Source: Pseudorhodoferax soli (lineage in GTDB: Bacteria > Pseudomonadota > Gammaproteobacteria > Burkholderiales > Burkholderiaceae_C). From it: a DNA stretch of 64,000 bases. The DNA lies in assembly GCF_003337555.1 (NCBI RefSeq), contig NZ_QPJK01000002.1:744001-808000 (forward strand). The letters are read 5' to 3'. This document shows, one piece after another, positions 44,402 through 51,742 of this stretch; position 1 is the stretch's first letter, and the number at the start of each line of letters is the position of its first letter. The notes under the pieces were generated by a model, which saw only the letters and a list, made by a program, of their open reading frames with translations, was not told the origin of the DNA and ran no database searches. The position numbers and the translations under genes are program-made.

Positions 44402-45316
44402 ATGGACCAGATCCAGTCGATGCGGGCATTCACGCGCGTCGTGGAAGCAGGCAGTTTCACCAAAGCAGCCGAGTCGCTGGATGTGCCCAAGGGCACCGTC
44501 ACCAAACAGATCCAGGCGCTGGAGACCCGGCTGCGCGTGCGGCTGCTGAACCGCACCACGCGCCGCGTGACGGTGACCGCCGACGGCGCAGCCTATTACG
44601 AGCGCACGCTGCGTCTGCTCTCCGACCTGGACGACATCGAGGCGAGCATGGGCAATGCCCAGGCCCGGCCCAGCGGCCGGTTGCGCGTGGACATCGGCGC
44701 CTCGGTGGCGCGGCTGCTGGTGATCCCGGCGCTGCAGGGCTTCTTCGAGCGCTATCCCGACATCCAGCTCGACCTGGGCGTGAGCGACCGCCCGGTGGAC
44801 CTGATCGCCGACAACGTGGACTGCGTGATCCGCGGCGGCGAGCTGACCGAGCAGTCGCTGGTGGCGCGGCGCATCGGCAACATCGACTTCGTGACCGTGG
44901 CCTCGCCGGCCTACCTGGCGCGCCATGGCACGCCCGCGCACCCGACCGAGCTGGAGCACAGCCACACCATGGTGAGCTTCTTCTCCTCGCGCACGGGCCG
45001 GCAGTACAACCATTACTTCGAGTGCGCCGACGAGCGCCACGAAATCACCGGCCGCTACCAGCTGGCCGTGAACGAGAGCAACGCGCTGTCCGAGGCCGGT
45101 CTGGCCGGCCTGGGCATCGTGGCGCTGACCCGCTTCGACGTGAAGCCGCACATCGAGAGCGGCGCGCTGGTGCAGATCCTGCCGGACTGGAAGCGCCGCA
45201 CCCTGCCCTTCTACGTGGTCTATCCGCCCAACCGCCACCTCTCGGCCAAGGTGCGCGCATTCGTCGACTGGGCGGCCGAACTGTTCGCCAAAAACCCCTA
45301 CATGCAGGCCCGCTGA
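44402..45316 (+). CDS. LysR-family transcriptional regulator, tandem paralogue 1
   Basis: 304 residues from ATG 44402 with ribosome site GAAGGAAG. HTH: FTRVVEAGSFTKAAESLDVPKGTVTKQIQALETRLRVRLLNRTTRRVTVT. Effector domain of the CrgA/AphB-like type (LDLGVSDRPVDLIADNVDCVIRGGELTEQSLVARRIG). It is divergent from the hydrolase-like gene across 225 bp, which hold no other gene. Nearly collinear with the gene at 45681, from which it differs mostly in the effector domain. Confidence 0.93.
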   Translation: MDQIQSMRAFTRVVEAGSFTKAAESLDVPKGTVTKQIQALETRLRVRLLNRTTRRVTVTADGAAYYERTLRLLSDLDDIEASMGNAQARPSGRLRVDIGASVARLLVIPALQGFFERYPDIQLDLGVSDRPVDLIADNVDCVIRGGELTEQSLVARRIGNIDFVTVASPAYLARHGTPAHPTELEHSHTMVSFFSSRTGRQYNHYFECADERHEITGRYQLAVNESNALSEAGLAGLGIVALTRFDVKPHIESGALVQILPDWKRRTLPFYVVYPPNRHLSAKVRAFVDWAAELFAKNPYMQAR

Positions 45317-45680: not shown

Positions 45681-46595
45681 ATGGACCAGATCCAGTCCAT
45701 GCGCATGTTCACGCGCGTCGTGGAAGCCGGCAGCTTCACCAAGGCCGCCGAGTCGCTCGACATCCCCAAGGGCACCGTCACCAAGCAGATCCAGTACCTG
45801 GAGGCGCGGCTGCGCGTCAAGCTGCTCAACCGCACCACGCGCCGGGTGACCGTCACGCCCGATGGCGCGGCCTACTACGAACGCACCGTGCGCTTGCTGT
45901 CGGACTTCGACGACATCGAGGCCAGCATGAGCAACGCCCAGTCGCGCCCCAGCGGCCGGTTGCGCGTGGACGTCGGCGCCTCGATCGCACGGCTGCTCGT
46001 GATCCCGCAGCTGCACACCTTCTTCGAGCGCTTTCCCGACATCCAGCTCGACCTGGGCGTGAGCGACCGCCCGGTGGACCTGATCGCCGACAACGTGGAC
46101 TGCGTCATCCGCGGCGGCGAGCTGACCGAGCAGTCGCTGGTGGCGCGGCGCATCGGCGGCGTGGAGCTCATCACCGTGGCCACGCCGGGCTACCTGGCCC
46201 AGCACGGCACGCCGGCCCACCCGACCGAGCTGGAAAAGGGCCACCGCCTCATCAACTACTTCTCTTCGCGCACGGGCCGTCAGTTCCCCCACCTGTTCGA
46301 GCGCGGCGAGGAGCACCTCGAGATCCTCGGGGCCTACCAGCTCGCGGTCAACGAAAGCAACGCGCTGACCACGGCCGTGCTGGCCGGCCTGGGCGTCACG
46401 CAGGTGGCGCGCTTCGGCCTGCAGCAGCACCTGGACAACGGCACGCTGGTGCGCGTGCTGCCCGACTGGGGCCACCCGCCCATCCCGCTGCACGTGGTCT
46501 ACCCGCCCAACCGCCACCTGTCCGCCAAGGTGCGCGCCTTCGTGGACTGGGCGACCGAGCTGCTCGGGCGCGCCCCCTACCTGCAGGCGCGCTGA
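45681..46595 (+). CDS. LysR-family transcriptional regulator, tandem paralogue 2
   Basis: 304 residues, same length as paralogue 1 at 44402 and identical over long runs (LDLGVSDRPVDLIADNVDC, PPNRHLSAKVRAFVDWA). The DNA-binding helices differ at only a few positions, so both proteins may read the same operator. The effector pocket region (GGVELITVATPGYLAQHG versus GNIDFVTVASPAYLARHG) has diverged more. Its stop is 41 bp before the YheO-type regulator gene. Confidence 0.93.
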   Translation: MDQIQSMRMFTRVVEAGSFTKAAESLDIPKGTVTKQIQYLEARLRVKLLNRTTRRVTVTPDGAAYYERTVRLLSDFDDIEASMSNAQSRPSGRLRVDVGASIARLLVIPQLHTFFERFPDIQLDLGVSDRPVDLIADNVDCVIRGGELTEQSLVARRIGGVELITVATPGYLAQHGTPAHPTELEKGHRLINYFSSRTGRQFPHLFERGEEHLEILGAYQLAVNESNALTTAVLAGLGVTQVARFGLQQHLDNGTLVRVLPDWGHPPIPLHVVYPPNRHLSAKVRAFVDWATELLGRAPYLQAR

Positions 46596-46599
46596 AGTC

Positions 46600-46636
46600 T
46601 CTGGACAAAACGTCTACATCTGGACAAAATATCCAG
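46600..46636 (+). promoter_or_regulatory. tandem TCTGGACAAAA repeats just before the YheO-type regulator start
   Basis: TCTGGACAAAA at 46600-46610 and 46619-46629, 19 bp apart; the second copy also forms an inverted repeat CTGGA-N7-TCCAG (46620-46636) that abuts the ATG. TGGACA and CAAAAT could be a -35/-10 pair 17 bp apart, placing the start of transcription at or near the ATG. Suggests autoregulation. Confidence 0.5.
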
Positions 46637-47278
46637 ATGCCGACCGCCAAACCGTCCAGAACCGCTGCCCAGCGCGCCCTGCTGGGCCAGCTCGAACACA
46701 TCGCCCAGGGGTTGGGCGAGACCTTCGCGCCGTTCTGCGAGGTCGTGGTGCACGACCTGCTGGACCCGGGCCACGCGATCGCCGCGATCCACAACAACCT
46801 GTCCGGCCGCGCCGTCGGCGACCCGGCCACCGAGCTGGGCCTGGCCCGCATCGCCGACCCGGCCTACGCGCCGGTGCTGGCCAACTACGCCAACCGCTTC
46901 GCCGACGGGCGCCAGGCCAAGAGCACGTCGATCGGCGTCAAGGACGCCGAGGGCCGCTACGTGGCTGCCCTGTGCTTGAACGTGGACCTGACGCTGTTCA
47001 AGAGCCTGCAGAGCGCCATGGGCCAGTTCGTGCAGGTCGACACCCAGGCCGCGCCGGCCGAGACGCTGGACCCGGCCGGCGCCGACGCGATCCGCGCGCG
47101 CATCGACCGCTACGCCGCCGCGCGCGCGAGCACCCCGCGCGCACTCAAGGCCGACGAACGCCGTGCGCTGCTGGCCGAACTCAAGGCCGAGGGCCTGCTG
47201 CAGCTGCGCCACGCCATGCAGACCGTCGCCGCCCACCTGGGTGTGTCGCGCGCCACGGTGTACAGCGATGCGCGCTGA
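46637..47278 (+). CDS. YheO/DauR-type regulator: PAS-like domain plus HTH
   Basis: 213 residues. The N-terminal YheO-like domain runs to about residue 125 (FAPFCEVVVHDLLDPGHAIAAIHNNLSGRAVGDP is the hallmark) and the C-terminal HTH reads VAAHLGVSRATVYSDAR. In Pseudomonas DauR controls D-arginine catabolism and in other bacteria relatives control amino-acid-derived pathways. It overlaps the next gene by 11 bp and has tandem repeats directly upstream, so it heads the hydroxyaspartate-type operon and is probably autoregulated. Confidence 0.88.
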   Translation: MPTAKPSRTAAQRALLGQLEHIAQGLGETFAPFCEVVVHDLLDPGHAIAAIHNNLSGRAVGDPATELGLARIADPAYAPVLANYANRFADGRQAKSTSIGVKDAEGRYVAALCLNVDLTLFKSLQSAMGQFVQVDTQAAPAETLDPAGADAIRARIDRYAAARASTPRALKADERRALLAELKAEGLLQLRHAMQTVAAHLGVSRATVYSDAR

Positions 47279-48233
47279 AGCCCCTGCAGCCCGTTTGCGC
47301 CTGCTCGACGGCCCGACCGTGGCCGCGCTGCTGGAGCCCGCCGCCGTGCGCGCGGCCGTGGCCGAGGCCTTCGCGCTGCACAGCCGCGGCGAGGGCCGCA
47401 CGTTTCCAGTGGTGCGTGAGCAGCTGGCCGAGGGCGTGTTCGGCATCAAGTCGGGCGCGGTGCCGGCGCAGGCGCTGCTGGGCTACAAGTCGGCGGGCTT
47501 CTGGCCAGCCAACCGCGGCCGGGGCGGCGAACCGCACCAGGCCACCATCGTGCTGCACGACCCGGCCACGGGCCGGCCGCTGTGCGTGCTGGACGGCAAT
47601 GCGATCACCAGCGCGCGCACGGCGGCTGCCGGCGCCATCGGCCTGCAGCGCCTGGCCCGGCCCGGGAGCCGCGCGCTGTGCCTGTTCGGCACCGGCGTGC
47701 AGGCCCGCGCCCACCTGGCCGAGGCGCTGCGCGTGCTGCCTGCGCTGGAGCAGGTGCGCTACTGCACGCACCGCGGCCAGCCGGACGCGGCCTTCGAATC
47801 CGCCTTCGCGGGCCGCTGCGCGCTGCAGTTCGCCCCCGATGCCGACACCGCCGTGGCCGCCAGCGACGTGGTGATCACCGCCACGCCCGGCGCCGGCGTG
47901 CTCTTCGGCCTGGGTGCCGTGCGCCCCGGCACACACATCAACGCCGTCGGCGCGGACACGCGCGGCAAGCGCGAACTGCCCGAAGGCCTGCTCGCGCGTG
48001 CCCGGCTCGTGGTCGACGACCGCAGCCAGGCGCGCCAGCTCGGTGAGGCGCAATGGGCGCCGGAGCTGCCCTGCACCGAAATCGGCGCGCTGGACGACGC
48101 CGCGCGCGCCCCCGAGACGATCACCGTGTTCGACCTGACCGGCCTCGCGCTACAGGACCTTGCCGTCGCGCGGATGGTGCTGGCCAGCGCCGAGGCCCAG
48201 GGCCTGGGCCTGGACATCGCCTGGCCCTGGTAG
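47268..48233 (+). CDS. ornithine cyclodeaminase/mu-crystallin-family enzyme (imine reductase candidate)
   Basis: 321 residues from ATG 47268, overlapping the regulator. NAD-binding motif LFGTGVQARAHLAEAL in the centre, catalytic region IKSGAVPAQALLGYKSAGFW with conserved Lys. Family reactions include ornithine cyclisation, ketimine or iminosuccinate reduction (BhcD of the beta-hydroxyaspartate cycle), and EutC of ectoine breakdown. Adjacent hydroxyaspartate-type dehydratases would release iminosuccinate, so reduction to aspartate is a coherent guess. Motifs alone do not decide. Confidence 0.8.
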   Translation: MRAEAPAARLRLLDGPTVAALLEPAAVRAAVAEAFALHSRGEGRTFPVVREQLAEGVFGIKSGAVPAQALLGYKSAGFWPANRGRGGEPHQATIVLHDPATGRPLCVLDGNAITSARTAAAGAIGLQRLARPGSRALCLFGTGVQARAHLAEALRVLPALEQVRYCTHRGQPDAAFESAFAGRCALQFAPDADTAVAASDVVITATPGAGVLFGLGAVRPGTHINAVGADTRGKRELPEGLLARARLVVDDRSQARQLGEAQWAPELPCTEIGALDDAARAPETITVFDLTGLALQDLAVARMVLASAEAQGLGLDIAWPW

Positions 48234-48275
48234 CCCCTTTCGTCACCCCCTTCTCCACCCGTCCCTTCCAACGCC

Positions 48276-49253
48276 ATGAACGACCTGACCCTGCCGACCT
48301 ACGAAGACGTGGCCGCCGCCGCACGCCGCATCGAAGGCCATGCCCACCGCACGCCCGTGATGACCTCGCGCACGCTCGACGCGGCCATCGGCGCCCAGGT
48401 GTTCTTCAAGTGCGAGAACCTGCAGCGCATGGGCGCCTTCAAGTTCCGCGGCGGCTTCAACGCGCTGTCGAAGTTCGACGCGGCCCAGCGCCGCGCCGGC
48501 GTCGTGGCGTTCTCGTCGGGCAACCACGCCCAGGCCATCGCGCTGTCGGCACGCATCCTGGGCATCCCGGCCACCATCGTGATGCCCAATGACGCGCCGG
48601 CCATGAAGGTCGCGGCCACCAAGGGCTACGGCGCCACCGTCGTCAGCTACGACCGCTACACCGAAGACCGCGAGCAGATCGGCCGCGACCTGGCGCGCAA
48701 GCACGGCTTCACGCTGATCCCGCCCTACGACCACCCCGACGTGATCGCCGGCCAGGGAACTGCTGCCAAGGAACTCATCGAGGAGGTCAGCCCGCTCGAC
48801 GCCTTCTACGCGCCGCTGGGCGGCGGCGGCCTGCTGTCGGGCTCGGCGCTGGCGCTGCGCGCGCTGTCGCCCAAGACCCGCATCGTCGGCGTGGAACCCG
48901 AGGCCGGCAACGACGGCCAGCAGTCCTTCCGCAGCGGCGCCATCGTGCACATCGACGTGCCCAAGACCATTGCCGACGGCGCGCAGACCCAGCACCTGGG
49001 CCACTACACCTTCGGCGTGATCCAGAGCGCCGTGGACGACATCCAGACCGCCAGCGACGCCGAGCTCGTGGACGCCATGGCCTTCGCCGCCGCGCGCATG
49101 AAGATCGTCGTGGAACCGACCGGCTGCCTGGGCCTGGCCGCGGTGCGGCGCGAGGCCACCGCGCTGCGCGGCCAGCGCATCGGCGTGCTGCTGAGCGGCG
49201 GCAACGTCGACCTGGCGCGCATGTGCGAACTGCTCGGGGCGCGGCCGGCATGA
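48276..49253 (+). CDS. threonine-dehydratase-fold PLP enzyme, L-3-hydroxyaspartate ammonia-lyase type
   Basis: 325 residues. PLP Lys56 is in MGAFKFRGGFNALS, the phosphate loop is PLGGGGLLSGSAL and the second loop SSGNHAQAIALSARILGIPATIVMPNDAP. Length and absence of an ACT domain match catabolic dehydratases and the L-threo-3-hydroxyaspartate ammonia-lyase / BhcB group, which makes iminosuccinate that hydrolyses to oxaloacetate and ammonia. EutB of hydroxyectoine degradation is an alternative. The stop overlaps the next gene by 4 bp. Confidence 0.82.
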   Translation: MNDLTLPTYEDVAAAARRIEGHAHRTPVMTSRTLDAAIGAQVFFKCENLQRMGAFKFRGGFNALSKFDAAQRRAGVVAFSSGNHAQAIALSARILGIPATIVMPNDAPAMKVAATKGYGATVVSYDRYTEDREQIGRDLARKHGFTLIPPYDHPDVIAGQGTAAKELIEEVSPLDAFYAPLGGGGLLSGSALALRALSPKTRIVGVEPEAGNDGQQSFRSGAIVHIDVPKTIADGAQTQHLGHYTFGVIQSAVDDIQTASDAELVDAMAFAAARMKIVVEPTGCLGLAAVRREATALRGQRIGVLLSGGNVDLARMCELLGARPA

Positions 49254-50392
49254 CAGCGCCCGACCTGGCCGCGCTGGAGACGCCGCTGCTGCTGCTCGAC
49301 GAAGCCCGCATGCAGCGCAACATCGCGCGCATGCAGCAGCGCATGGATGCGCTGGGCGTGCGCTTTCGCCCGCACGCCAAGACCAGCAAGTGCGCCGAGG
49401 TGGTGCGCCGCCAGCTCGCTGCCGGCGCACGGGGCATCACGGTCTCCACGCTGAAGGAGGCCGAGCAGTTCTTCGCCGCCGGTGTGGACGACATCCTGTA
49501 CGCCGTGGCCATCGTGCCGTCCAAGTTCGACCACGCGCTGCGCCTGGTGCGCGCGGGCTGCCGGCTCACGCTGCTGGTCGAGTCCGTCGCGGCCGCCGAA
49601 CAGCTGGCCGCGCATGGCCGCGCCAACGGCCACAGCCACCGCGTGCTGATCGAGGTGGACACCGATGGCCACCGCAGCGGCATCCCGCCCGAGGACGCGC
49701 GGCTGCTGGCCGTGGCCGCCGCCCTGGTGGACGACGGTGCCGAACTGGCCGGCGTGCTGACCCACGCCGGCAGCTCCTACGGCCTGAACACGCCCGCTGC
49801 GCTGGAGGCCATGGCCGAGCAGGAGCGCGCCGGCTGCGTGCGTGCGGCCGAGCGCCTGCGCGCCGCCGGCCATGCCTGCCCCGTGGTCAGCGTGGGCTCC
49901 ACGCCCACCGCGCTGCACGCGCGCCGGCTGGACGGCGTGACCGAGGTGCGGGCCGGCGTCTACGTGTTCTTCGACCTGGTGATGGCCGGCGTCGGCGTCT
50001 GCGGCGTGGACGAGATCGCGTTGTCGGTGCTGGCCACCGTGATCGGCCACCGGCCCGAGGCCGGCTGGATCATCACGGATGCAGGCTGGATGGCCATGAG
50101 CCGCGACCGCGGCACATCCAAGCAAGCACAAGACCACGGCTACGGCCTGGTGGCCGACATCCAGGGCCAGCCCATCGCCGAACTGGGCTTCGGCGAGGCC
50201 AACCAGGAGCATGGCGTGCTGCAGTGGAAGGGCACGCCCGGCGCAGACCTGGAGCGGCTCTTTCCGCTCGGCAGCCAGCTGCGCATCCACCCCAACCATG
50301 CCTGCGCGACCGGGGCGCAGCATGGGGCGTACCAGGTGCTGCCGGCCGACGGCGGCGCGCTACAGACCTGGCCGCGCTTCAGCGGCTGGTGA
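49250..50392 (+). CDS. fold-type III PLP enzyme, D-threo-3-hydroxyaspartate dehydratase / D-serine dehydratase type
   Basis: 380 residues from ATG 49250. PLP Lys44 is in RFRPHAKTSK and the C-terminal metal site reads HPNHACATGAQHG, His350 and Cys352. From memory, D-threo-3-hydroxyaspartate dehydratase of Delftia (also about 380 residues) and eukaryotic D-serine dehydratase use an H-x-C metal pair, whereas D-threonine aldolases use H-x-D. This favours a dehydratase over an aldolase. A beta-hydroxyaspartate aldolase (BhcC) is the main alternative, as it belongs to the same fold. With the preceding gene it would dispose of both stereo-series of hydroxyaspartate. Confidence 0.78.
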   Translation: MTAPDLAALETPLLLLDEARMQRNIARMQQRMDALGVRFRPHAKTSKCAEVVRRQLAAGARGITVSTLKEAEQFFAAGVDDILYAVAIVPSKFDHALRLVRAGCRLTLLVESVAAAEQLAAHGRANGHSHRVLIEVDTDGHRSGIPPEDARLLAVAAALVDDGAELAGVLTHAGSSYGLNTPAALEAMAEQERAGCVRAAERLRAAGHACPVVSVGSTPTALHARRLDGVTEVRAGVYVFFDLVMAGVGVCGVDEIALSVLATVIGHRPEAGWIITDAGWMAMSRDRGTSKQAQDHGYGLVADIQGQPIAELGFGEANQEHGVLQWKGTPGADLERLFPLGSQLRIHPNHACATGAQHGAYQVLPADGGALQTWPRFSGW

Positions 50393-50395
50393 GCA

Positions 50396-51328
50396 TCAGA
50401 ACACCGACAGCCCCGTCCGCGCCACGAACATCTCCAGCGCCTGGCGCCCCAGCGCCGAGTTGCCGGTGGCGTCCAGTGCGGGCGCCCAGACCGCCAGCGT
50501 GAGCCGGTCGGGCACCACGGCCACGATGCCGCCGCCCACGCCGCTCTTGCAGGGCAGGCCGATGCGGTAGGCGAACTCGCCGGCCGCGTCGTAGGTGCCG
50601 CAGGTCAGCATCAGCGCATTGATGCGGCGCGTCTGGCGCTCGGTGCAGACGGCGCGCCCGGCCCACAGCGGGTGGTGGCCGTCGCGGCTCAGGTAGGCGG
50701 CCGCCCGCGCCAGCTGCAGGCAGCTCATGCGCAGCGCGCACTGGTGGAAGTACAGGTCCAGCACCTGCTCGACGGGGTTGTCGAGCTTGCCGAAGCTCTT
50801 CATGAAGTTCGCCAGCGCGAGGTTGCGAAAACCCGTGGCCGCCTCGGACGCCGCCACCTCCTCGTCGAAGGCGACGGGCTCGCCCGCCAGCGCCGTCATG
50901 AGCGCCAGCAGCTCGGCCTTGGCCCCGCCGCCGAACAGCGAGACCAGCCGGTCGGCCACGGCGATGGCACCGGCATTGATAAAGGGGTTGCGCGGGCGGC
51001 CCTGTTCGAACTCCAGCTGCACCAGCGAATTGAAGGCGCTGCCCGAAGGCTCGCGGCCGATGCGCTCCCACAGCGCTTCGCCCAGGTGCTGCATGGCCAG
51101 CGTCAGCGTGAAGACCTTGGAGATGCTCTGGATGGAGAACGGCATGGCGCCGTCGCCGGCCTGGGCCTCCTGGCCATCGGCCGTGACCAGGGCCATGCCG
51201 AAGTGCCGCGCATCGATGCGGGCCAGCGCGGGGATGTAGCTGGCGACCTGGCCTTCGGTGCCGCGCAACTCGGACAGCGCCGCAACGATCCCGTCCAGCA
51301 CGGGCTGGAACTCGGGGGCAGCGCTCAC
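50396..51328 (-). CDS. glsA: glutaminase
   Basis: Hydrolyses glutamine to glutamate and ammonia. 310 residues from GTG 51328, overlapping the upstream stop by 4 bp. Serine-type active site: Ser68-x-x-Lys71 in PFSIQSISKVF, with downstream NPFINAGAIAV and YRIGLPCKSGVGGGIVAVVP as in GlsA. It is convergent with the hydroxyaspartate-type operon (3 bp apart). Confidence 0.9.
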   Translation of the reverse strand: MSAAPEFQPVLDGIVAALSELRGTEGQVASYIPALARIDARHFGMALVTADGQEAQAGDGAMPFSIQSISKVFTLTLAMQHLGEALWERIGREPSGSAFNSLVQLEFEQGRPRNPFINAGAIAVADRLVSLFGGGAKAELLALMTALAGEPVAFDEEVAASEAATGFRNLALANFMKSFGKLDNPVEQVLDLYFHQCALRMSCLQLARAAAYLSRDGHHPLWAGRAVCTERQTRRINALMLTCGTYDAAGEFAYRIGLPCKSGVGGGIVAVVPDRLTLAVWAPALDATGNSALGRQALEMFVARTGLSVF

Positions 51329-51621
51329 TTGTCGTCGTCGTCGCGCAGCTCGTAGAGGCCGGGGCGGTCGGTCTGCACGAACACGGGCTGCTCTTCCTCG
51401 TTGACGCGGGGGCCGATGGCCATGTTGTCGTCGGCCAGCGCGCTGAGCACGGCCGTGCCGTTCGCCCACGCATCGCCGTAGGTGGCGCAGCTCTCTTCGG
51501 CCGCCAAAAGGACTTCGAAGGGCTCGTCGTCTGCGAAACGCTCCAGGACGACCCAGCGGTACTCGCCGCTGCGGTACTCCTGCACCGACAGGGCCAGGGA
51601 TCTGAGTGCGGGCAAAGACAT
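51325..51621 (-). CDS. small acidic protein of unknown function
   Basis: 98 residues from ATG 51621 (MSLPALRSLALSVQEYRSGEYRWVVLER). It looks like a compact beta-rich domain (EYRWVVLERFADDEPFEVLLAAEE, then PVFVQTDRPGLYELRDDDDK) and has no signal peptide. The stop overlaps the glutaminase GTG, so the two are likely co-translated. The terminal DDDDK is a coincidental sequence. No family recognised. Confidence 0.6.
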   Translation of the reverse strand: MSLPALRSLALSVQEYRSGEYRWVVLERFADDEPFEVLLAAEESCATYGDAWANGTAVLSALADDNMAIGPRVNEEEQPVFVQTDRPGLYELRDDDDK

Positions 51622-51742
51622 GGAACGGGCTCCGTCGCTTGTGCGGTGGGTGGACGCGGCTGATGTGGGTTGCTCGGATGCTAGCAAGCACGCGGGCCGG
51701 CTCAGGCGGGGACCGTTAAAAAAAATCTGCGGCGGCAGGGTC

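What the first reader, a model, noticed from the sequence alone, without database searches (positions are those of the whole stretch)
46637..50392. Hydroxyaspartate-type operon with two opposite-handed dehydratases and an imine-reductase candidate
The operon combines a YheO/DauR-type regulator, an ornithine-cyclodeaminase-family enzyme, a threonine-dehydratase-fold enzyme and a fold-III PLP enzyme with an H-x-C metal pair (His350/Cys352). Read together: L- and D-series 3-hydroxyaspartate are dehydrated to iminosuccinate, which the first enzyme could reduce to aspartate, keeping the nitrogen. It resembles the beta-hydroxyaspartate cycle (BhcB, BhcC, BhcD families) but lacks a BhcA aminotransferase and an IclR-type BhcR, and uses a different regulator. 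It could be an undescribed variant or a stand-alone hydroxyaspartate route. EutB/EutC-like ectoine use is a weaker alternative.
Basis: partly seen in the sequence, partly recalled or inferred. Interest (0 to 1): 0.75.

Follow-up and report, generated by a model that had tools for sequence, protein, structure and literature searches.

The report
Operon recycling hydroxyaspartate into aspartate
A four-gene bacterial operon encodes a regulator, two enzymes that likely remove water from different stereoisomers of the unusual amino acid hydroxyaspartate, and a reductase that is predicted to turn the product into ordinary aspartate, so that the nitrogen would be kept instead of lost as ammonia.

Summary
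The operon is real: four overlapping or closely spaced genes (46637-50392) in a Pseudorhodoferax-like genome. The two PLP enzymes are well placed. One is over the curated cut-off for threo-3-hydroxy-L-aspartate ammonia-lyase. The other is 65% identical to the crystallised Delftia D-threo-3-hydroxyaspartate dehydratase and has its H-x-C metal site; BhcC-type aldolases have H-x-D. The third enzyme is an ornithine-cyclodeaminase (OCD) family reductase whose best family model is iminosuccinate reductase BhcD, far below that model's cut-off. It lies outside EutC/alanine dehydrogenase. So: not the beta-hydroxyaspartate cycle and not EutB/EutC, but a likely hydroxyaspartate salvage module acting on other isomers than that cycle. 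The reductase's substrate is inferred. I rate this a new variant of a known kind.

The parts
46602..46630 (+). promoter-like site: TGGACA - 17 nt - CAAAAT; with a start point about 7 nt further on, the mRNA would begin at or near the regulator's ATG (near-leaderless; inferred)
   Evidence: only promoter-like hit in 46400-50700, shuffles mean 0.2
46621..46635 (.). predicted operator, palindrome TGGACA-AAA-TATCCA (within CATCTGGACAAAATATCCAGATG), with a further half-site TGGACA at 46602; overlaps the promoter-like site
   Evidence: half-site pair (either order, spacer 1-9) in 25 of 76 regions upstream of regulator homologues; shuffles mean 0.04, GC-matched windows mean 0.14; the window's site found in the genome
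46637..47278 (+). YheO/DauR-type regulator (PAS_6 + HTH_22), 213 aa
   Evidence: Pfam PF08348 116.6 bits, PF13309 62.5 bits
47268..48233 (+). OCD/mu-crystallin family imine reductase candidate, 321 aa; predicted iminosuccinate reductase
48276..49253 (+). fold-II PLP enzyme, predicted L-threo-3-hydroxyaspartate dehydratase, 325 aa; PLP-lysine K56 (codon 48441-48443)
   Evidence: NF005454 571.5 bits over cut-off 452; 65.7% identical to S. pombe 1v71; K56 and S81 align with its K57 and S82 (their catalytic role is recalled)
49250..50392 (+). fold-III PLP metalloenzyme, predicted D-threo-/L-erythro-3-hydroxyaspartate dehydratase, 380 aa; PLP-lysine motif RPHAK, K44 (codon 49379-49381)
   Evidence: 3wqc Delftia D-THA dehydratase, E 1.2e-149, 64.7% identity over 377 aligned positions; tree
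50297..50305 (+). codons of the H-x-C metal ligands His350 and Cys352
   Evidence: P-N/Y-H-A-C in 30 of 30 rows of at least 45% identity and over 330 aa, a few of them near-copies

Best explanation
This four-gene operon encodes a YheO/DauR-type regulator, an OCD-family reductase and two unrelated PLP enzymes, and it is predicted to dehydrate 3-hydroxyaspartate isomers to iminosuccinate and likely to reduce that imine to aspartate. The fold-II enzyme would take L-threo-3-hydroxyaspartate. The fold-III metalloenzyme would take the D-threo and L-erythro isomers. Each would release 2-aminomaleate/iminosuccinate, which otherwise hydrolyses to oxaloacetate and ammonia (recalled chemistry). The reductase, made from the same transcript, would trap the imine with NAD(P)H as aspartate and so keep the nitrogen. 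The regulator would bind the palindrome that overlaps its own promoter and switch the operon by sensing the substrate or a product. Shown here: the genes, their families, metal and PLP motifs, linkage, clades and the conserved palindrome. Inferred: substrates, the reduction step and the regulation.
For: Dehydratases: curated L-enzyme family met; 65% identity to the solved D-enzyme with ligands intact; the D-enzyme tree puts 3wqc inside the operon-linked rows and BhcC with D-threonine aldolase on the other side. Linkage: of 80 reductase loci, regulator in 72, L-enzyme in 39 (37 within 350 bp on the same strand), D-enzyme in 25 (19 within 1.5 kb), both in 16. Reductase: best NCBIfam model BhcD; outside the clade of EutC, alanine dehydrogenase and AlaDH-like rows at 98/97 support. 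Accessory genes within 5 kb of the reductase, the query's own locus included: Rid family 4 of 80, dicarboxylate symporter 3 of 80, type II asparaginase 4 of 80 (one at 33% identity), a second asparaginase 1 of 80; 0 of 55 for each around L-enzyme genes without the reductase.
Against: The reductase is 202 bits against a BhcD cut-off of 500 and only 35% identical to BhcD, about as near to archaeal alanine dehydrogenase in identity (34%) and fold. A joint clade with BhcD is neither supported (45% of bootstrap trees) nor rejected (p-AU 0.42). Positions shared only with BhcD (6) are no more numerous than those shared only with an AlaDH-like group (7) or the other-order group (6). The L-enzyme is common without the reductase: 55 of 60 fetched loci. 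Tripartite-transporter receptor genes, 15 of 80, also occur in the control (4 of 55) and say little. Fold-II relatives can also act on serine (recalled). No transporter lies in the window's operon.
Confidence: 0.65

Rival explanations
1. The dehydratases are right but the pathway ends at oxaloacetate and ammonia; the OCD protein acts on another imine or amino acid.
For: The L-enzyme lacks the reductase in 55 of 60 fetched loci; the reductase is far below the BhcD cut-off.
Against: 74 of 80 reductase loci carry an L-, D- or threonine-synthase-like PLP lyase in the held stretch; a diverged reductase is kept between both dehydratases in two genomes of another order.
Confidence: 0.17
2. A serine/D-serine route: the PLP enzymes make 2-iminopropionate from L- and D-serine, and the OCD protein reduces it to alanine.
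Against: D-enzyme 65% identical to D-THA dehydratase, 35% to D-serine dehydratase 3anu; L-enzyme over the hydroxyaspartate cut-off; asparaginase and dicarboxylate symporter in a few relatives; the reductase lies outside the alanine-dehydrogenase clade.
Confidence: 0.1
3. A variant beta-hydroxyaspartate cycle for glyoxylate assimilation.
For: Same enzyme classes as BhcB, BhcC, BhcD; a BhcA-like class V aminotransferase (438 bits) exists at G000:C7:391705-392871.
Against: No Bhc cut-off met; no aldolase in the operon, since the H-x-C motif is the dehydratase form; the aminotransferase is on another contig, next to a pyrroline-carboxylate-reductase-type OCD; regulator is not IclR.
Confidence: 0.04
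4. EutB/EutC-like hydroxyectoine use.
For: Same two folds side by side.
Against: 225/413 and 94/472 bits; trees with 9 EutC rows and the 9 dehydratase genes beside them keep both apart; no EutC match at E <= 1e-100 in this genome.
Confidence: 0.02

Closest known systems
D-threo-3-hydroxyaspartate dehydratase, Delftia sp. HT23 (PDB 3wqc)
   Same: 65% identity, H-x-C metal site, PLP lysine motif; nested among operon-linked relatives
   Different: characterised as a single enzyme; its gene context was not seen here. A Delftia locus (L048) has the D-enzyme, regulator, reductase and L-enzyme in a row
threo-3-hydroxy-L-aspartate ammonia-lyase (NF005454; S. pombe 1v71 relative)
   Same: over the curated cut-off
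   Different: here in an operon with a reductase; 55 of 60 relatives fetched have no reductase beside them
beta-hydroxyaspartate cycle bhcABCD, Paracoccus
   Same: dehydratase plus OCD-family reductase making iminosuccinate then aspartate (cycle chemistry recalled)
   Different: no aldolase, no aminotransferase in the operon, no IclR BhcR, other dehydratase clade; D-erythro-hydroxyaspartate, the cycle's isomer (recalled), is an inhibitor of the Delftia D-enzyme
dauBAR of Pseudomonas aeruginosa (recalled)
   Same: YheO-type regulator with an OCD-family enzyme
   Different: D-arginine pathway, no PLP dehydratases; not compared by sequence

Membership tests
beta-hydroxyaspartate cycle | BhcB over curated cut-off | tested here: not met
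   352 of 550 bits; BhcB rows form a separate clade
beta-hydroxyaspartate cycle | BhcC aldolase | tested here: not met
   107.9 of 690 bits; H-x-C not H-x-D, 9 of 9 BhcC rows have HCD
beta-hydroxyaspartate cycle | BhcD over curated cut-off | tested here: not met
   202 of 500 bits; separate clade
beta-hydroxyaspartate cycle | BhcA aminotransferase | tested here: not met
   none in the operon; best genome hit 438 of 650 bits on contig C7
beta-hydroxyaspartate cycle | IclR-type BhcR | tested here: not met
   regulator is PAS_6/HTH_22
D-threo-3-hydroxyaspartate dehydratase | sequence kinship and metal/PLP residues | tested here: met
D-threo-3-hydroxyaspartate dehydratase | activity on D-threo-3-hydroxyaspartate | not testable with these tools
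   needs assay
threo-3-hydroxy-L-aspartate ammonia-lyase NF005454 | curated score cut-off | tested here: met
   571.5 of 452 bits
threo-3-hydroxy-L-aspartate ammonia-lyase NF005454 | activity | not testable with these tools
   needs assay
iminosuccinate reductase (function) | reduces iminosuccinate to aspartate | not testable with these tools
   fold and family fit; joint clade with BhcD undecided
EutB/EutC | curated cut-offs | tested here: not met
   225/413 and 94/472 bits; trees
YheO/DauR-type regulator | PAS_6 + HTH_22 | tested here: met

The most novel reading that the evidence does not exclude
A swappable imine-trapping cassette: one regulator, one operator and one iminosuccinate reductase stay fixed while the dehydratase is exchanged among an L-threo enzyme, a D-threo/L-erythro metalloenzyme and a third, unrecognised threonine-synthase-like hydroxyaspartate dehydratase. 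It salvages stereoisomers of beta-hydroxyaspartate or beta-hydroxyasparagine, for example from siderophores, as L-aspartate without losing nitrogen.
Probability: 0.3. Interest if true: 0.75.

Novelty: new variant of a known kind. Interest (0 to 1): 0.52.

Why it matters
If right, it gives a physiological setting to enzymes known mainly as tools for making pure hydroxyaspartate isomers (recalled). It also shows a second, cycle-free use of iminosuccinate reduction and points to an uncharacterised threonine-synthase-like enzyme family as a further dehydratase. The isomers handled would differ from that of the beta-hydroxyaspartate cycle. Beta-hydroxyaspartate occurs in siderophores of Cupriavidus (abstract of PMC10484230 as shown in the search listing), a genus in which related loci were found.

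Tried and rejected
Bhc cycle and EutB/EutC: rejected by cut-offs and trees.

Counting positions shared only with BhcD as evidence for the reductase's substrate: rejected, because the control counts are equal (6, against 7, 6 and 1). The group called EUTC is not EutC: the three members tested (of eight) score best against alanine dehydrogenase, below its cut-off. Real EutC rows were added.

Structure of the reductase: alanine dehydrogenase and BhcD tie, so the fold does not decide the substrate.

A joint clade of the three hydroxyaspartate-linked reductase lineages: weak (80 SH-aLRT, quick tree), undecided in the careful tree.

Further sites of the operator in the own genome: 13 places of the loose pattern, one of them the operon's own; the other 12 were not followed.

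Tally: gene clustering and tblastn give slightly different counts of loci; the figures used are those.
Full report
Anatomy. The four genes are read from one strand with an 11-nt overlap, a 42-nt gap and an ATGA overlap. The regulator carries PAS_6 and HTH_22; the second protein is OCD/mu-crystallin; the third PALP; the fourth alanine-racemase N-terminal plus D-serine-dehydratase domains. Two LysR genes lie upstream and a glutaminase gene lies downstream on the other strand. The window lies in an 8.16-Mb, 30-contig genome; the closest named reductase homologues are Pseudorhodoferax and neighbours.

The fold-II enzyme. It scores 571.5 bits against NF005454, threo-3-hydroxy-L-aspartate ammonia-lyase (cut-off 452), and 352 against BhcB (cut-off 550). 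It is 65.7% identical to S. pombe 1v71. In the tree it lies with operon-linked and stand-alone relatives; nine BhcB rows form a separate clade, and so do nine dehydratase genes that sit beside EutC in a second tree. Stand-alone and operon copies are intermixed (10-11 label changes on the best tree, at least 4 forced by starred branches), so this gene has moved in or out of the operon repeatedly. It is common without the operon: 94 of 250 genomes of the family, the own one included, have it at E <= 1e-100. Of the 98 places listed outside the own genome I fetched 60, mostly from the top of the list; 5 of those 60 have the reductase beside it and one more (L162) the regulator alone.

The fold-III enzyme. 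Best solved relative: Delftia D-threo-3-hydroxyaspartate dehydratase, 64.7% identity over 377 aligned positions. His350 and Cys352 align with the H and C that read Ala in entries 4pb3 and 3wqg. P-N/Y-H-A-C is present in 30 of 30 rows of at least 45% identity and over 330 residues, a few of them near-copies, while nine of nine BhcC proteins from bhc clusters have H-C-D. The tree places 3wqc inside the operon-linked rows and BhcC with D-threonine aldolase 4v15. The Delftia enzyme acts on D-threo- and L-erythro-hydroxyaspartate, with the D-erythro isomer as inhibitor (PMC8071972, passages and section 14). That paper prints (2S,3S) for L-erythro; by the usual rules (recalled) it should be (2S,3R). 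The D-erythro isomer is the intermediate of the beta-hydroxyaspartate cycle (recalled), so this operon should not serve that cycle.

Linkage. A scan of species genomes with an alignment of 25 reductases gave 249 pattern hits, 232 confirmed, 80 kept. Of these 80, within the held stretch (up to 8 kb each side): regulator 72 (65 within 1.5 kb), L-enzyme 39 (39), D-enzyme 25 (19), both 16, either 48, threonine-synthase-like PLP enzyme 26 (19); none has the last together with either of the first two; 6 have none of the three, two of which are cut by a contig end soon after the reductase. The 80 include groups of close relatives. In a drawn set of 300 genomes of the order only 3, the own one included, have the reductase at E <= 1e-60, so the module is patchy. 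On the reductase tree the swap between hydroxyaspartate-type and threonine-synthase-like type needs 5 changes on the best tree, although starred branches force only 1. The threonine-synthase-like protein is below the threonine synthase cut-offs (best 232 of 301).

Independent versions. Identities to the window are 71% for the L-enzyme, 50-51% for the D-enzyme and 69-74% for the regulator (over 88-95 aligned residues), but 36-37% for the reductase. The gene set is thus kept with a reductase of another lineage; the one tested again matches BhcD best (222.5 bits). Ten loci taken as BhcD controls had BhcB, BhcC and BhcD homologues side by side in 9 of 10; the tenth was cut by the contig end.

Accessory genes. 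Within 5 kb of the reductase, each count including the locus from which the query came: Rid family 4 of 80, sodium:dicarboxylate symporter 3 of 80, type II asparaginase 4 of 80 (one at only 33% identity), another asparaginase 1 of 80, M81 peptidase 4 of 80, M20 peptidase 2 of 80; each 0 of 55 around L-enzyme genes without the reductase. Tripartite-transporter receptors, 15 of 80 against 4 of 55, do not discriminate (families). L016 has regulator, reductase, L-enzyme, asparaginase, Rid, symporter on one strand; L017 has Rid, symporter, threonine-synthase-like enzyme, reductase, asparaginase on one strand. This fits import of an aspartate- or asparagine-like substrate and an imine intermediate. 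The numbers are small.

Operator. A half-site pair, TGGAYA and TRTCCA in either order with 1-9 nt between, typically TGGAYA-N3-TRTCCA or TRTCCA-N4-TGGAYA, occurs in 25 of 76 regions upstream of regulator homologues; dinucleotide shuffles give 0.04 (maximum 1 in 100 rounds), GC-matched windows from 73 of the loci 0.14 (maximum 1 in 200 rounds). The pattern was chosen after looking at these regions; the 76 include close relatives and leave out five duplicates of loci already held. In the window it sits at 46621-46635 and overlaps the only promoter-like site of the region. The binding protein is inferred to be the regulator.

Literature. Searches of the held open library for hydroxyaspartate dehydratase terms (157 papers, 40 listed), iminosuccinate reductase terms (11), Delftia and threo-3-hydroxyaspartate (63, 10 listed), hydroxyaspartate with ornithine cyclodeaminase (3), hydroxyaspartate with siderophore terms (28, 15 listed), hydroxyaspartate with dehydratase, gene cluster and Burkholderi (3) and hydroxyaspartate ammonia-lyase terms (4) listed no paper whose title or shown start of abstract describes such an operon. 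I read passages of PMC11876095 and PMC11323563 (BhcR as IclR-type activator), and passages and one section of PMC8071972; nothing else. Subscription papers are not covered, so absence from print is not shown.

Verdict. A real, partly conserved hydroxyaspartate dehydration operon with a likely imine-reducing step, distinct from the beta-hydroxyaspartate cycle. The dehydratase assignments are strong; the reductase assignment is moderate; the wider cassette idea is open.

Noticed in passing
L050:11654-12844 and 26 of 80 reductase loci: A threonine-synthase-like PLP enzyme replaces the hydroxyaspartate dehydratases beside the same regulator and reductase, never together with them in the held stretches.
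   Followed up: partly
   Followed up: partly
G000:C7:389726-392943 (L090:7727-10944): A pyrroline/piperideine-2-carboxylate-reductase-type OCD (405 bits, cut-off 322) next to a BhcA-like class V aminotransferase (438 bits), with a divergent gene that looks GntR-like by eye.
   Followed up: partly
44402-45316 and 45681-46595: Two tandem LysR regulators of the same type just upstream, both also upstream of the operon in L010-L012.
   Followed up: no
L056, L064, L071 (Cupriavidus): Regulator, reductase, tripartite tricarboxylate receptor, M81 (MlrC-like) peptidase, D-enzyme and RpiR regulator in a row; a peptide-derived substrate is possible.
   Followed up: partly
50396-51691: Glutaminase gene convergent with the operon; whether it could act on hydroxyasparagine is unknown.
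   Followed up: no
L052:14540-16515: An AlaDH-like OCD next to a threonine-dehydratase-like PLP enzyme, neither over the cut-off of any family listed: another unassigned dehydratase-reductase pair.
   Followed up: no
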